From: an uncultured Campylobacterota bacterium
Lineage (GTDB): Bacteria > Campylobacterota > Campylobacteria > Campylobacterales > Sulfurovaceae
Reading direction: 5' to 3'
Length of the DNA stretch: 64,000 nt
Assembly (NCBI GenBank): GCA_937141405.1
Contig: CAKZQQ010000005.1
Span: 620,001 to 684,000, forward strand
Positions 13,299 through 19,616 of this stretch are shown here, piece after piece. Each line of letters begins with the position of its first letter. Position 1 is the stretch's first letter. Under the pieces are notes generated by a model. The model was not told the origin of the DNA. It did no database searches and saw only the letters and a program-made list of their open reading frames with translations. The position numbers and the translations under genes were made by a program.

Positions 13299-15842
13299 AT
13301 GCAAACACCTAGTTTATTTGATTATATTAACAATACACAAGGAATAGATATAAAAACTTTAACTTATATTTCGCTTTTTAGTAGTGCTGGAATTGGTTGT
13401 TATGGATTTAAACAACAAGGTTTTAAATGTATCGCAACAAATGAGTATTTAGAGAAAAGAATAAAAATACAGCAATATAATGATAAATGTGAATTTGCTA
13501 GTGGTTATATACAAGGTGACTTAGCAACAAAAGAAATACAAGATAAAATCTATAAAGAATTAGAAAATAATAATGTAAATGACTTAGACGTATTAGTTGC
13601 AACTCCTCCTTGTCAAGGCATGTCAGTAGCAAATCATAAAAAAAACAATGAAACAAAAAGAAATTCACTTGTTGTTGAATCTATTAAAATTGTCAATAAA
13701 ATTAAGCCTAAGTTTTTCATTTTTGAAAATGTAAGAGCATTTTTAACTACTATTTGTACGGATGTTGACAATACCGATAAGCCTATTGGTGACTCTATTG
13801 AATTAAACTTAGCAGGTGATTATAATATACTATCTAAAGTAGTCAATTTTAAAGAGTATGGTTCTCAATCAAGCAGAACAAGAACTTTAATAATGGGAGC
13901 TAGAAAAGACTTAGTTAACATTAGTCCTTATCAGCTTTTCCCAAAAGAACAAAAAGCAAAAACTTTAAAGGCACTCATTGGCGATTTACCGTCATTAAAG
14001 ATGATGGGAGAAATATATGATGACGATATTTATCATTCATATCGAAGTTTTGATACTAAAATGCTACCCTGGATAAAGGACTTAAGAGAAGGAGAATCTG
14101 CTTTTGATAATAAAGATCCATTAAAAAGACCTCATCGAATTATTCATGGGAAAATAATATACAATAAAAATAAAAATGGTGATAAATATTCAAGATGGTA
14201 TTGGAATAAAGTTGCTCCTTGTATACACACAAGAAATGACATTTTAGCTAGTCAAAGTACAATTCATCCATCTGACAATAGAGTATTTAGCATTAGAGAG
14301 TTAATGCAAATGATGACAGTACCAAATGACTTTAAATGGTCAAATATAGATTCTGACACACTTAATAATTTACCGATAGAAGAAAAGAAAAAACACCTAA
14401 AACAAGAAGAGTTAAATATAAGGCACTGCATAGGTGAAGCAGTTCCGACTAAAATTTTTGAGCAAATTGCCTCCAATATAAAAAAAGCTTTAAAAAACAA
14501 AGTGCTATCTATCAATGAGATAACTAGGATAATACAAAAATATAACCTTGAAGATATGAATACATTAAGAGCATTTATATCAAATAATGAACACAAATAC
14601 GATATAAATACTCTTTATAATATTGCAGAACTTTCAAATATAAAAAGGACTGAAACTAAAGCATATTTTACAAGAGAAGATATAGTGTTTAATGTTATAA
14701 ATAAATTACCTAGTTTTAAAGCCAAAAAGAGCTTAAAAATATTAGAGCCATCAGTAGGGATTGGAAACTTTTTACCTTTATTGTTTAAAAAGTATAAAGA
14801 TATTCAAGATGTTATTTTGGATGTTATTGATATTGATAAAAACTCATTGGATATATTAAAAATACTATTGTCTAAAACAAACATACCTAAAAATTTCACG
14901 ATTAACTTTATTCATACAGATTTTTTACTGTGGGAAAATAGTACAGCTTACGATTTAATTATTGGAAATCCACCTTATGGGAAAGTTGCAAATAACAAAA
15001 CTCTACTAGATAAATATAAATTAAATTGTAAAAATAAAGATACAAATAACTTGTTTTCATTTTTCATAGAAAAAGCAACAAGATTATCAAAGTATGTATC
15101 ACTAATAGTTCCAAAAAGCTTAATTAACGCACCAGAGTTTAATCAAACAAGAGATTTATTAGAAAATACAAATCTGCACTCAATCACTGATTACGGAGAA
15201 AAAGCTTTTAAAGGTGTCAAAATAGAAACTATTAGCTTTTTATTAGATACTTATAAACAAGATAAATTTGAAAAAATAAAAATTGAAAGCTATATAACAA
15301 ATAGTATTGAATATCAAGATAAATCTTATATATTTTCTAAAGAGTTTCCTTATTGGTTAATATATAGAAATAGTTTTTTTGATGCTATTGTAGATAAAAT
15401 GGAATTAGATATTTTTGAAAGTTTTAGAGATAGGCAAATCACAAAGAAACATACTCTAAGTAAGGGTAAAATTAGAGTTCTAAAATCAAGAAATATTGAT
15501 AATAATGATATCAAAGATATAAAAGATTATGATTGTTTTATAAATGATGTTGATAGCTTTGTAGTTTCAAAATTTTTGAATCAAAATGATATAGTCTTAG
15601 TACCAAATCTTACTTATTATCCAAGAGCGACATTTTTGCCCAAAAATACAATTACTGATGGGTCAGTTGCACTGTTAAAACCTAAAGAAAATATCAAAGT
15701 TACATCTGAACATTTAGAATATTATAGTAGTGAAGAATTTACAGAATATTATAAAATAGCCAGAAATAGAGGGACTAGATCATTAAATATTGATAATAAT
15801 TCTGTTAAATTTTTTGGGTTATTGAAAGAAAACATATCTTAA
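13299..15842 (+). CDS. bifunctional DNA methyltransferase: C5-cytosine domain fused to gamma-class N6-adenine domain
   Basis: Residues 20-400 form a m5C methyltransferase: motif I ISLFSSAGIG (24-33), motif IV PPCQ with catalytic C105, ENV at 143-145, QSSRTR at 190-195, a short target-recognition region, and motifs IX/X (SIRELMQMM, GEAVPTKI). Residues about 450-847 form an amino-methyltransferase: motif X-like YFTREDIV, motif I ILEPSVGIGNF (481-491), motif IV NPPY (557-560), then a TaqI/Eco57I-type recognition region. This order defines the gamma class. Two modification chemistries in one chain fit an asymmetric target with C methylated on one strand and A on the other, as in some type IIS systems. 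It is the first gene of an AT-rich, probably acquired operon. The ATG has a GAGGAAG ribosome site. Confidence 0.9.
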   Translation: MQTPSLFDYINNTQGIDIKTLTYISLFSSAGIGCYGFKQQGFKCIATNEYLEKRIKIQQYNDKCEFASGYIQGDLATKEIQDKIYKELENNNVNDLDVLVATPPCQGMSVANHKKNNETKRNSLVVESIKIVNKIKPKFFIFENVRAFLTTICTDVDNTDKPIGDSIELNLAGDYNILSKVVNFKEYGSQSSRTRTLIMGARKDLVNISPYQLFPKEQKAKTLKALIGDLPSLKMMGEIYDDDIYHSYRSFDTKMLPWIKDLREGESAFDNKDPLKRPHRIIHGKIIYNKNKNGDKYSRWYWNKVAPCIHTRNDILASQSTIHPSDNRVFSIRELMQMMTVPNDFKWSNIDSDTLNNLPIEEKKKHLKQEELNIRHCIGEAVPTKIFEQIASNIKKALKNKVLSINEITRIIQKYNLEDMNTLRAFISNNEHKYDINTLYNIAELSNIKRTETKAYFTREDIVFNVINKLPSFKAKKSLKILEPSVGIGNFLPLLFKKYKDIQDVILDVIDIDKNSLDILKILLSKTNIPKNFTINFIHTDFLLWENSTAYDLIIGNPPYGKVANNKTLLDKYKLNCKNKDTNNLFSFFIEKATRLSKYVSLIVPKSLINAPEFNQTRDLLENTNLHSITDYGEKAFKGVKIETISFLLDTYKQDKFEKIKIESYITNSIEYQDKSYIFSKEFPYWLIYRNSFFDAIVDKMELDIFESFRDRQITKKHTLSKGKIRVLKSRNIDNNDIKDIKDYDCFINDVDSFVVSKFLNQNDIVLVPNLTYYPRATFLPKNTITDGSVALLKPKENIKVTSEHLEYYSSEEFTEYYKIARNRGTRSLNIDNNSVKFFGLLKENIS

Positions 15843-15858
15843 TACACAGGAATTGCAA

Positions 15859-16230
15859 ATGCATAAAAATAGTTACGGTCAAAATAGACAAGTAAAGTTT
15901 ACGACTGAGCGTGAATACTACAGAGCACTTGGTTATCTAGCAAAATCAGACAATACTTCATCTATACATTGGGAAAATAACGAGGATCAAGGTGCTTGGG
16001 GAAGTGAAGGTAGAATACATTTTTTAATTAACACTCCTCCTATACCTGGATATTTTAAATTAACAGCTGGTAGACCAGGTGTAGAACATCATACTAATTG
16101 CAATGAGTTTGTTGAGAATATTGTAATAAATCATAATTTTGTAATGAGTAGTAGCCAAAATATTGAAAATATAAGAAGTACAGTACCAGCTAGTTTTATT
16201 AATGATTTCAATTATGGATTAACACTTTAA
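15859..16230 (+). CDS. small unknown protein between methyltransferase and nuclease
   Basis: This is a 123-residue protein starting at the ATG at 15859 (AGGA seven bases upstream), 16 bp after the methyltransferase stop. It is soluble, with no signal or transmembrane segment. Notable segments are FTTEREYYRALGYLA near the start, then SIHWENNEDQGAWGSEGRIH and FKLTAGRPGVEHHTNCNEF. I recognise no family: it lacks Vsr mismatch-endonuclease motifs and an obvious HTH of C-protein type. Its position suggests a restriction subunit, an inhibitor or a controller. Confidence 0.7.
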   Translation: MHKNSYGQNRQVKFTTEREYYRALGYLAKSDNTSSIHWENNEDQGAWGSEGRIHFLINTPPIPGYFKLTAGRPGVEHHTNCNEFVENIVINHNFVMSSSQNIENIRSTVPASFINDFNYGLTL

Positions 16231-16250
16231 TAATGTAAGGATATTAACTT

Positions 16251-17411
16251 ATGATAAACACTATAGAAGCTTACTTACAAACTATTGATTTAGATATTAG
16301 AAAAACAAACAATGCTAGGTTTTTTGACCAAAAAGTGCAACCAGATGTTTTAAGTGCTGTTTGTGAATGTATATTAAACTGCATTAATGAAGATGACTCA
16401 TTTAGTGTAAATGATGTCAGATATTGTGATTATTCAAATGAATTAGTAACTGAAATATTTAATAAGCCCGATATAAAAAAAGCAGAAAATGAATATGATA
16501 AGTTTTTTTCTCAACCCTTGAAAATGTTAGCTTATAGTGGTTTAGTAAGTGAAGAAAAAAATGGTCGTTCAAATGTGTATAAAATCATAAAAAAAGACTT
16601 TATTGAGTATATTTCTTTAAGAGATAGAAATGCTTTTTATTTTTTATCAATGTATCTTGAAAAAGTTTTAAAAGATAGTGATATATGGAAATATTTTGAT
16701 AATTTTTTTAATAAACAAGATAAAAATTCATTGTATGAATTAAGAGATAAGTATGTAGCTTTTATTATTGAAAATACTGCAATTACAAAAGAACTTGAGC
16801 CAATACGAATATTTAATCCTATGCTCAATATTTTAAGTTTTAAGTATAAAAAATTTGGTAGTAAATCAGGTGAAGTGTCTATTGTTAACTATAATGATTT
16901 ACTTTATAATAGACCAAATTGGAGAGATGTTAAAAAAGATAAATCTGTTACCAGAGAAGAATTTAATGTACAATTCTTCGAAAAAGAAATTAAGAATGAA
17001 AAATTTTATAAATATCAAATCGAAAAAGCCAAAAGACTTGTTAAAACTATTCATTCCTTTAGTGAAATTCATAGGTTCGACGCATATCCAGCGACACAAG
17101 CACATCATATTTTTTTGGCGTCACAATTTCCAGAATTAGCTGATATTCCTGAAAATATTATTGCTATAACTCCAAATCAACATTTTTATAGAGCACATCC
17201 AAATAATAAAACGAGTGTTTTAGATAAATCATATCAAGCAATTTGTTTAATTTCAAAATTAGATTCTATTGAAATTGATTATAGAAATGGTAATGGGTAC
17301 TATACTAAAGAAAATTTTATTGATGTAATTAATATTGGTTTAGAGCAAGACTTTAGTTATGCAATTGATTTTGAAGAATTGAAACATAATATCATCAGAT
17401 ATTACACTTAA
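16251..17411 (+). CDS. putative type II restriction endonuclease with HNH (beta-beta-alpha-metal) site
   Basis: The 386-residue protein is third in the R-M operon. Near the C-terminus, AHHIFLASQFPELADIPENI followed by IAITPNQHFYRAHP has the HNH layout: H285/H286 (general base), N302 or N309, and H311. Residues about 80-120 (LKMLAYSGLVSEEKNGRSNV) look like a winged helix and may read DNA. Some type IIS enzymes such as Eco31I use an HNH site with a double-activity modification system, which supports but does not prove the role. The very low GC matches its neighbours. The recognition site is unknown. Confidence 0.75.
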   Translation: MINTIEAYLQTIDLDIRKTNNARFFDQKVQPDVLSAVCECILNCINEDDSFSVNDVRYCDYSNELVTEIFNKPDIKKAENEYDKFFSQPLKMLAYSGLVSEEKNGRSNVYKIIKKDFIEYISLRDRNAFYFLSMYLEKVLKDSDIWKYFDNFFNKQDKNSLYELRDKYVAFIIENTAITKELEPIRIFNPMLNILSFKYKKFGSKSGEVSIVNYNDLLYNRPNWRDVKKDKSVTREEFNVQFFEKEIKNEKFYKYQIEKAKRLVKTIHSFSEIHRFDAYPATQAHHIFLASQFPELADIPENIIAITPNQHFYRAHPNNKTSVLDKSYQAICLISKLDSIEIDYRNGNGYYTKENFIDVINIGLEQDFSYAIDFEELKHNIIRYYT

Positions 17412-17580: not shown

Positions 17581-17651
17581 GTACATATATGGGCTGGGTG
17601 CAAACCTTTGCTCGCCCCTTGGGGGCAACTACTTCACTCAAAACTTTTTTT
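17581..17651 (+). ncRNA. candidate small RNA convergent with the mazF 3' end
   Basis: The transcript predicted from the orphan promoter begins near 17581. It contains the hairpin GCCCCTTGGGGGC (17614-17626) and runs into T7 (17645-17651), which overlaps the last codons of mazF in antisense. There is no credible reading frame. It could be a small regulatory RNA or a leader of lost genes. The evidence is sequence layout only. Confidence 0.35.
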
Positions 17652-18044
17652 AATAGCTTCATTTATTTTCATCTGTAATGTTTTTGATATAAATGGTTTT
17701 ATAACATCTTTTACTCTTCTTTTCTTGTCGATATTTCTAATATGACTAACTTTTATAGTTGTTTTGTTCTCAACGATATGCCCATATCTATCAATATCTA
17801 TCACTACATTTGTTCTATAATTTTCATCGCCCTCTCTATAGGTTGTTAAAGGAACTACGGCGATAATATCTGCTTTTACATCGTTTGAAACTACTATTGC
17901 CATATGTCTATAACAAAATTCATGACCCATATTTAAACCATGAGTGTATGTTCTAGTGTCTTCACAATCTAAATCTTCTTTTTTATTTCCAAATTCCACC
18001 CAAAGTAATGAATATTTATTCAAATCTGCCCATCTTATCGCCAT
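17634..18044 (-). CDS. MazF/PemK-family toxin (solitary)
   Basis: The 136-residue protein has the MazF/PemK pattern: GHEFCYRHMAIVVSND, then IIAVVPLTTYREGDENYRTN, then TTIKVSHIRNIDKKRR near the C-terminus. Family members are mRNA interferases of the SH3-like barrel fold. They normally pair with a small antitoxin immediately upstream, but here nothing is encoded between this ATG and the Fic gene. It lies tail-to-tail with the R-M operon and shares a 16-nt upstream element with it. Alternative antitoxins are a distant protein, the Fic module, or the convergent RNA candidate. Confidence 0.8.
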   Translation of the reverse strand: MAIRWADLNKYSLLWVEFGNKKEDLDCEDTRTYTHGLNMGHEFCYRHMAIVVSNDVKADIIAVVPLTTYREGDENYRTNVVIDIDRYGHIVENKTTIKVSHIRNIDKKRRVKDVIKPFISKTLQMKINEAIKKSFE

Positions 18045-18064: not shown

Positions 18065-18117
18065 GAATATATTATAATGCAATATCCAACGAATATATTA
18101 TAAATATGTCATTTTGC
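18065..18117 (-). promoter_or_regulatory. mazF leader: 13-bp direct repeats and shared 16-nt element
   Basis: GAATATATTATAA occurs twice on the plus strand (18065-18077, 18091-18103), 26 bp apart and each containing the palindrome AATATATT. On the minus strand these supply TATAAT -10 sequences. GCAAAATGACATATTT, identical to the element before the R-M operon, covers 18102-18117 on the minus strand. The layout suggests an operator-controlled promoter. Confidence 0.5.
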
Positions 18118-18148: not shown

Positions 18149-19285
18149 TTACAACACAACCTCATAACGCGTACTTCTCCCGCTTGTGCCTGCAACCTGC
18201 TTGATGCATCCTTTATCGACAAGCTCTTTGATGTCTCTTGCAGCTGTCGCTTTACTCGTCTTTGTGATAGACAAATATTTCTTTGTACTAAGTCCTCCAT
18301 CAAAACCATCAACTCCTATATTGAGTATCTTGTTGAGTACTTTTATTTGTCTTTCATTGAGTTCTTTATCTCTGCATCTATCCCAAAATTTTGTCTTTTG
18401 GATGATGTATGTGATATTGTTTTGAGACAATAGCATCGCCTCATCAAACATATCCAAGTGCCACTCGAGCCAAGGAGTGATGTCATAATCTCTATTATAA
18501 AATAGATTCGTAGTGCGATCTAGTATCTTGTAGTACTCTTTTTTCTTTTTGTTGATTGCCGAAGAGAGAGAATAGAGTTTTGGCGTTCCCTTTGGAATAT
18601 GCAACGAGATGATATAATCCGCAATAGCTCTTGCAATCCTGCCGTTGCCATCTTCATAGGGGTGGATAATCACAAACCATAGATACGCGATGGCACTTTT
18701 TATATATGCATTGGTATCACTTTCATTACAATATCTCAAAAGTCTTGCGATATCATCAGCTATCAACGATGAAGGTGGGGCTTTATAGTGAACTTTCTCA
18801 TGACCTATGGCACCGGAAACCACCTCCATATCATCACTCTCTCTAAACGAAGCAACTCGAATCTTCTCAAGTGCATTAAATCTATTTTCAAAAAGACAAT
18901 TATGCCATCCATGAAGTCTATCTTCTGTGAGCGGTGATCTATTGGTAGCGCAATCTACAAGGATTTCCACCAAATTATCACTTTGATGTGTAGAGCTATC
19001 TTTTGAAGAATCAAAATTTGCATCAAGTTTTTTCAAAAGCGAATCCCTTACGCTCTGTCTTTGAAATATCTCCCCCTCTATCGCGGATGTGTTGATAGCC
19101 TCTTCTAAAAAAGTATCAATATTTATCAGTGCACTGTCATCTTGTGCTATCAACTTTGATATCCCCTCTAAGATTCCTCTATGATGTTCGATTTTTATAA
19201 GTCTATCAGTTAATTTTGAACTATCAAATCTAAAATGAGGATATACCTCGTGCTGCCATATCCATTTTTGTATATTTTTATCCAT
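18149..19285 (-). CDS. Fic-domain protein with DUF4172-like N-terminus and C-terminal winged helix
   Basis: This 378-residue protein starts at the ATG at 19285, which has a GGAGAT site; in-frame ATGs further upstream lack one. The N-terminus WIWQHEVYPHFRF matches DUF4172. The inhibitory motif TSAIEG (66-71, S/TxxxEG) precedes the Fic core, making it a class II, self-inhibited enzyme. The catalytic loop HPYEDGNGRIAR (208-219) is intact, so AMP transfer to a protein target is predicted. The C-terminal 70 residues (KYLSITKTSKATAARDIKEL) form a winged helix that could bind the repeats in front of the gene. It lies next to the R-M/MazF island. Confidence 0.9.
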   Translation of the reverse strand: MDKNIQKWIWQHEVYPHFRFDSSKLTDRLIKIEHHRGILEGISKLIAQDDSALINIDTFLEEAINTSAIEGEIFQRQSVRDSLLKKLDANFDSSKDSSTHQSDNLVEILVDCATNRSPLTEDRLHGWHNCLFENRFNALEKIRVASFRESDDMEVVSGAIGHEKVHYKAPPSSLIADDIARLLRYCNESDTNAYIKSAIAYLWFVIIHPYEDGNGRIARAIADYIISLHIPKGTPKLYSLSSAINKKKKEYYKILDRTTNLFYNRDYDITPWLEWHLDMFDEAMLLSQNNITYIIQKTKFWDRCRDKELNERQIKVLNKILNIGVDGFDGGLSTKKYLSITKTSKATAARDIKELVDKGCIKQVAGTSGRSTRYEVVL

Positions 19286-19295
19286 ATTTATCTCC

Positions 19296-19372
19296 ATGAG
19301 ACGATTAATTGTCTTAATCATATCATATTATGAGACGACTTGTCAAAATAATCACCTCATTTTATGAGACGA
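19296..19372 (-). promoter_or_regulatory. fic promoter with three operator-like repeats at 34-bp spacing
   Basis: ATGAGACGA occurs at 19296, 19330 and 19364 on the plus strand, exactly 34 bp apart. Units 2 and 3 also hold a reverse partner near the end (ATCACCTCA, ATCATCTCA), making imperfect inverted repeats. On the minus strand TTGACA (19341-19346) and TATGAT (19317-19322, 18-bp spacer) form the promoter. One repeat lies upstream of the -35, one between the boxes and one just after the -10. This geometry suits repression, probably by the winged helix of the Fic protein. Confidence 0.6.
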
Positions 19373-19616
19373 TTAGCATCTATTATCATCTCAATGCCCC
19401 TATTTTGGCTACCCCTTTAAATCTTTTTTTGTAGGTTTTTCTCCATTTACCATAGAGCCATCTAGCATATAACTTTTTACTGCGGGTGTCACCCTACTCT
19501 AAATTAAAATAAAGCAATCAAAACAGAACGCCGTAAAACAGTGCCTTATCATAAATATCAAATAATTATTTAGCTTAAAAATTATCAATATTTCTCACTC
19601 ATTTTTGTAAAAAATA
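19373..19616. other. intergenic region between fic and the reductase genes
   Basis: No gene can be supported here. A minus-strand frame of about 35 strongly basic residues runs over 19386-19493 without a normal start codon and may be a gene remnant. The rest is AT-rich leader for the downstream operon. Confidence 0.4.

What the first reader, a model, noticed from the sequence alone, without database searches (positions are those of the whole stretch)
19296..19372. Three fic-promoter repeats with exact 34-bp spacing around the -35 and -10 boxes
ATGAGACGA recurs at 19296, 19330 and 19364; units 2 and 3 have inverted partners (TGAGGTGAT/TGAGATGAT type). The copies lie before the -35, between the boxes and just after the -10, a classic repressor array. 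The Fic protein itself has a C-terminal winged helix, so autoregulation linked to AMPylation state is plausible.
Basis: partly seen in the sequence, partly recalled or inferred. Interest (0 to 1): 0.6.

Follow-up and report, generated by a model that had tools for sequence, protein, structure and literature searches.

The report
Self-regulating operator array before Fic gene
Three evenly spaced mirror-image DNA sites sit on the promoter of a bacterial AMP-transferring (Fic) toxin-like enzyme; the same layout precedes its relatives in several bacterial groups, so they are most likely the docking sites by which the enzyme's own DNA-binding tail shuts down its gene.

Summary
ATGAGACGA occurs at 19296, 19330 and 19364, exactly 34 bp apart. 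Each copy is one arm of a 29-bp palindrome (11-N7-11), so there are six half-sites on the minus strand: O1 19393-19365, O2 19359-19331, O3 19325-19297. The -35 (TTGACA, 19346-19341) starts in O2's spacer and the -10 (TATGAT, 19322-19317) is in O3's left arm. In the 1.75-Mb genome these are the only sites within one mismatch. The same layout lies upstream of DUF4172-Fic-wHTH genes across Campylobacterota and in Alpha- and Gammaproteobacteria: a blind scan of 225 geometries picked a 33-34 bp period in 41 of 61 loci (shuffles 46 of 366), and a reverse search of 397 genomes put 18 of 20 hits directly before this gene. Neighbouring genes differ; half-site sequence varies with the Fic recognition helix. 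Best reading: autorepression by Fic itself, as shown for CccR of Yersinia pseudotuberculosis. The proposed link to AMPylation state is untested, and for CccR catalysis and repression are separable. New here: the multi-operator geometry, its breadth, and a predicted specific DNA target for the CbFic2-like branch, whose specific site was left open. No binding was measured.

The parts
18149..19285 (-). fic gene: DUF4172 + Fic + C-terminal winged HTH, 378 aa, class II Fic
   Evidence: Pfam DUF4172 1.9e-20 and Fic 3.8e-13; PADLOC SoFic 2.8e-39; closest solved structure CbFic2 8CIL, E 2.8e-82 and 38% identity; start set by ortholog alignment
19365..19393 (-). operator O1, TGAGATGATAA-N7-TAATCGTCTCA, upstream of the -35
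19331..19359 (-). operator O2, TGAGGTGATTA-N7-AAGTCGTCTCA, spacer holds most of the -35
19297..19325 (-). operator O3, TGATATGATTA-N7-TAATCGTCTCA, left arm contains the -10, the rest covers the expected transcription start
19341..19346 (-). predicted -35 TTGACA
   Evidence: 11 of 12 matches with the -10, spacer 18
19317..19322 (-). predicted -10 TATGAT
   Evidence: arm positions 4-9 stay -10-like (TACTAT, TACGAT, TATGAT) in Campylobacterota orthologs
18215..18253 (-). predicted recognition helix of the wHTH (residues 345-357, KATAARDIKELVD); second residue covaries with half-site type
   Evidence: AlphaFold2 model, wHTH pLDDT about 77-91; alignment
18629..18664 (-). Fic motif HPYEDGNGRIAR (residues 208-219)
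19073..19090 (-). N-terminal inhibitory motif TSAIEG (residues 66-71), class II
19292..19295 (-). putative ribosome-binding GGAG before ATG 19285
   Evidence: sequence

Best explanation
The array is a set of three operators for the Fic protein itself. A homodimer, joined through the N-terminal DUF4172 helix as in the solved relatives, places its two C-terminal winged helices on the two 11-bp arms of one 29-bp palindrome. Three dimers side by side would cover about 97 bp, from upstream of the -35 through the -10 to the expected transcription start, exclude RNA polymerase and hold fic expression low (negative feedback on a potentially toxic AMP-transferase). Shown here: sites, geometry, promoter overlap, conservation, exclusivity in the genome. 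Inferred: binding, dimer stoichiometry, cooperativity, repression.
For: Geometry conserved: half-sites at about -74, -56, -40 and -22 from the start codon in most close orthologs; a blind scan of 225 geometries chose period 33-34 in 41 of 61 loci and the 18/16 layout in 20, against 46 and 2 of 366 shuffles. Reverse search: 18 of 20 operator hits in 397 Campylobacterota genomes lie directly before this gene, with no hits for the reversed control pattern. In its own genome the three sites are the only ones within one mismatch. Similar palindromes occur before Pseudomonadota relatives while the neighbouring genes differ: plasmid, arsenic, transposon and restriction genes. Half-site outer bases go with the recognition-helix residue: A with CTCA 30, T with ACCA 11, D with CGCA 8. 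Precedent: CccR represses its own promoter through palindromes near the -35 and -10, shown by footprint, EMSA and ITC (PMC9755527).
Against: No binding or expression data for this protein. The operator-residue correlation rests on few independent evolutionary changes (3 pairs, none contrary, not significant), the operator labels were assigned by hand, and two loci with P at that position still have CTCA. CccR's reported site (10-bp arms, 26-bp spacer) differs in geometry. Some distant relatives (Sedimenticola, Gluconobacter, Roseicitreum) show weak or unclear arrays. The monomer model is only moderately confident overall (mean pLDDT 66.5).
Confidence: 0.85

Rival explanations
1. A different regulator, encoded elsewhere, binds the array and controls fic.
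For: No binding data identify the protein; many repressors use tandem palindromes.
Against: The array travels with fic across phyla and on plasmids with unrelated neighbours, is absent elsewhere in the genome, and its sequence changes along with the Fic recognition helix. A shared outside regulator would have to be present and co-vary in all these hosts.
Confidence: 0.08
2. The Fic protein binds the array, but mainly as a store or switch for enzyme activity: DNA-bound dimers are kept in a deAMPylating, safe state, and repression is secondary.
For: In the closest solved relative, CbFic2, DNA binding promotes dimerization and switches from AMPylation to deAMPylation (PMC10628234; homology).
Against: The CbFic2 work used random DNA; three sites would hold only six monomers per chromosome copy; in CccR catalytic and regulatory activity are separable (PMC9755527).
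Confidence: 0.15
3. The repeats are chance or a leftover of local duplication without function.
For: Tandem spacing can arise by duplication (general knowledge; no call supports it here).
Against: Window-wide and shuffle controls, conservation of the layout with diverged bases over about 30-65% protein identity, and inverted partners in all units.
Confidence: 0.02

Closest known systems
CccR of Yersinia pseudotuberculosis (PMC9755527)
   Same: Class II Fic with C-terminal HTH; palindromes near the -35 and -10 of its own promoter; demonstrated autorepression by a dimer.
   Different: Reported site is one inverted repeat AGATAATCAT-N26-ATGATAATCT; here three 11-N7-11 operators 34 bp apart. CccR is a type VI effector acting on FtsZ; nothing here indicates secretion. 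The paper reports CccR's dimer as a back-to-back form unlike 3EQX.
CbFic2 of Coxiella burnetii (PMC10628234, 8CIL)
   Same: Closest solved relative over the full length: same DUF4172, TSAIEG inhibitory motif, Fic and wHTH order.
   Different: Studied with random DNA; no specific operator known; proposed host target histone H3, which has no counterpart here.
SoFic / EcSofic anti-phage Fic proteins (PMC12249575)
   Same: Class II Fic with a C-terminal domain; PADLOC SoFic model matches (2.8e-39); here too the gene lies near a restriction-modification locus.
   Different: Far below the NCBIfam SoFic equivalog cut-off (42.6 against 550 bits); no room for an AS1-like small gene in the 104 bp before the next gene.

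Membership tests
Class II Fic AMP-transferase | HxFx(D/E)GNGRxxR motif | tested here: met
   HPYEDGNGRIAR, with Y in place of F, as in the close orthologs aligned
Class II Fic AMP-transferase | N-terminal (S/T)xxxE(G/N) inhibitory motif | tested here: met
   TSAIEG residues 66-71
CccR-type Fic autorepressor | C-terminal winged HTH | tested here: met
   AlphaFold model H311-323, H334-341, H345-357 and wing strands; full-length match to 8CIL
CccR-type Fic autorepressor | palindromes overlapping the -35 and -10 of its own promoter | tested here: met
CccR-type Fic autorepressor | operator with 10-bp arms and a 26-bp spacer | tested here: not met
   11-N7-11, repeated at 34 bp
CccR-type Fic autorepressor | protein binds and represses its own promoter | not testable with these tools
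   needs EMSA, footprint and reporter assay
SoFic single-gene defence system | match to the curated SoFic equivalog model | tested here: not met
   NCBIfam NF046030 42.6 bits against cut-off 550, although the PADLOC SoFic model matches
SoFic single-gene defence system | protects against phage | not testable with these tools
   needs plaque assays

The most novel reading that the evidence does not exclude
The array is both operator and on-DNA brake: Fic dimers bound to it are held in the deAMPylating form, so loss or degradation of chromosomal DNA, for example during phage attack, would at once derepress fic and release active AMPylating monomers. The promoter would then act as the sensor of a defence switch.
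Probability: 0.1. Interest if true: 0.8.

Novelty: new variant of a known kind. Interest (0 to 1): 0.5.

Why it matters
Autorepression by a Fic-HTH protein had one experimental example in the papers searched. Here a specific operator layout is found across a large branch (Campylobacterota, Alpha- and Gammaproteobacteria), with half-site types that differ by clade. This makes directly testable whether the CbFic2-like branch, so far studied only with random DNA, are sequence-specific regulators of their own genes, and it gives defined DNA for asking how DNA binding switches AMPylation and deAMPylation.

Tried and rejected
Wider regulon in the own genome: the next-best sites (2 mismatches) lie in coding sequence (L052, L054) or, for L053, upstream of another gene in a stretch that by recall resembles a Fur box; rejected as targets. 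Phage-borne relatives or decoys: no relative in viral contigs and a single operator match in a phage coding stretch. AS1-like small antitoxin downstream: no room in the 104-bp gap to the PemK-like gene. Matching the CccR site to the 18/16 half-site layout: the published letters do not fit it. A strict one-residue recognition code: not claimed, because P also occurs with CTCA and Bradyrhizobium (A at that position) has CTGCA/CAGCA-like arms. Simple per-locus inverted-repeat scores against shuffles were too weak alone in AT-rich DNA, hence the four-half-site scan. Fetching the promoters of the pathogen proteins CccR and CbFic2 as yardsticks was left out; their papers were used instead.

Full report
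Observation. On the minus strand the fic promoter carries three 29-bp palindromes (11-bp arms, 7-bp spacer): O1 19393-19365, O2 19359-19331, O3 19325-19297. Arms alternate in direction with steps of 18 and 16 bp, which gives the 34-bp direct period. The predicted -35 TTGACA (19346-19341) starts in O2's spacer and the -10 TATGAT (19322-19317) is part of O3's left arm. That arm is the one that departs from the TGAG consensus (TGATATGATTA), as expected if it must also serve as a -10. No other 9-mer in the window makes three spaced copies within 100 bp; 100 shuffled windows gave two such triples and none evenly spaced.

Gene. The protein is DUF4172 + Fic + winged HTH. It has an intact Fic motif (HPYEDGNGRIAR) and an N-terminal inhibitory TSAIEG, so it is class II. 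Orthologs align from ATG 19285; the longer ORF start at 19321 lies within O3. An AlphaFold model (mean pLDDT 66.5, winged-helix blocks mostly about 77-91) shows helices 311-323, 334-341 and 345-357 and a two-stranded wing. The best fold and sequence match is CbFic2, 8CIL.

Conservation. Upstream regions of 40 Campylobacterota loci (three of them near-identical, from one genome, and the window's own gene included) and 21 plasmid loci, 18 from Pseudomonadota and 3 from Campylobacterota, were compared. Close orthologs have half-sites at about -74, -56, -40 and -22 from the start codon. A scan that was free to choose among 225 geometries of four alternating half-sites picked period 33 or 34 in 41 of 61 loci and exactly 18/16 in 20; shuffles picked 33-34 in 46 of 366, about the level expected by chance, and 18/16 in 2. 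The window's promoter scored 52 against at most 42 in 400 shuffles. Most close orthologs show two operators; the window has three. Pseudoalteromonas, Pantoea, Acinetobacter and Raoultella carry TGAG/CTCA-type arms, and most alphaproteobacterial relatives carry TGCGG/CCGCA-type arms, often with the same 7-bp spacer.

Reverse test. An operator pattern with one mismatch allowed gave 20 hits in 397 Campylobacterota genomes. Eighteen lie directly before a DUF4172-Fic gene; of the other two, one is in coding sequence and one lies upstream of no fic. The reversed control pattern gave none. In the window's own genome only O1-O3 match within one mismatch. Four sampled same-genus genomes lack the gene and the sites. 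Gene neighbours differ among relatives, so fic is the only constant partner of the array.

Covariation. The second residue of the predicted recognition helix (residue 346) goes with the outer bases of the half-site: A with CTCA in 30 rows, T with ACCA in 11, S with ACCA in 1, D with CGCA in 8, V with ATCA in 1, R with GCCA in 1, M with AACA in 1; P appears with CTCA (2) and ATCA (1). On a tree built without the wHTH there are only 3 independent pairs; over random pairings 2.4 on average agree and none contradict, which is too few for significance. The operator labels were read by eye. This is suggestive, not proof.

Mechanism. Best-supported reading: Fic dimers bind each palindrome and repress fic. 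Shown: sites, layout, promoter overlap, conservation, exclusivity. Inferred: binding, dimer stoichiometry, cooperativity, repression. The arm-to-arm step within a palindrome stays at 18 bp in nearly all clades while the step between palindromes is 16 or 15, which suggests the 11-N7-11 unit is the one bound by a dimer. CccR provides the experimental precedent: C-terminal HTH binding by EMSA and ITC, a DNase I footprint on an inverted repeat near the -35 and -10, a 3.3-fold rise of the promoter fusion on deletion, and loss of repression in a dimer mutant that keeps AMPylation (PMC9755527). The 70-angstrom separation between CccR DNA-binding helices is about 20 bp of B-DNA, close to the 18-bp arm-to-arm distance here; that comparison is mine.

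AMPylation link. Not supported by anything here. In CccR catalysis and repression are separable. In CbFic2, random DNA promotes a dimer that deAMPylates, and the authors call for work on a specific binding sequence (PMC10628234). The array described here is a candidate layout for such a sequence in this branch of the family.

Novelty. New variant of a known kind: Fic-HTH autorepression is known from CccR, but the tandem 11-N7-11 operators at 33-34 bp, their spread over several bacterial classes and the clade-specific arm types were not found in the papers searched. That library lacks most subscription journals.

Noticed in passing
window 17634-18044 (-): PemK/MazF-like toxin gene (Pfam PemK_toxin 2e-10) starting 104 bp downstream of fic on the same strand; no antitoxin-like partner identified. 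Neighbouring with fic not checked systematically in relatives.
   Followed up: partly
window 18065-18104: Two near-identical TATAATATATTC units 26 bp apart just before the PemK-like gene, possibly its own operator or promoter repeats.
   Followed up: no
window 13299-17411 (+): Restriction-modification locus: an 847-aa protein fusing a C5-cytosine methylase with an Eco57I-type methylase, an unassigned small ORF, then a type II restriction enzyme (PADLOC REase_II 8.4e-100).
   Followed up: partly
genus code g10 (family f3) genomes: Many genomes of one related genus hold only truncated or stop-interrupted remnants of this fic gene, suggesting repeated decay.
   Followed up: no
L084 about 1501-1529 (G289:C63:3996-4024): A good operator match that is not upstream of a fic gene, between a YggS-like gene and a small HTH ORF near a type III methylase; may be chance or a remnant.
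   Followed up: partly
L069 (Sedimenticola plasmid): The Fic protein is annotated as 587 aa, with an extra C-terminal part of about 200 aa, and its promoter lacks a clear array.
   Followed up: no
L062 (Bradyrhizobium plasmid): Sits inside the D/CCGCA group but has A in the recognition helix and CTGCA/CAGCA-like arms: a natural experiment for operator specificity.
   Followed up: partly
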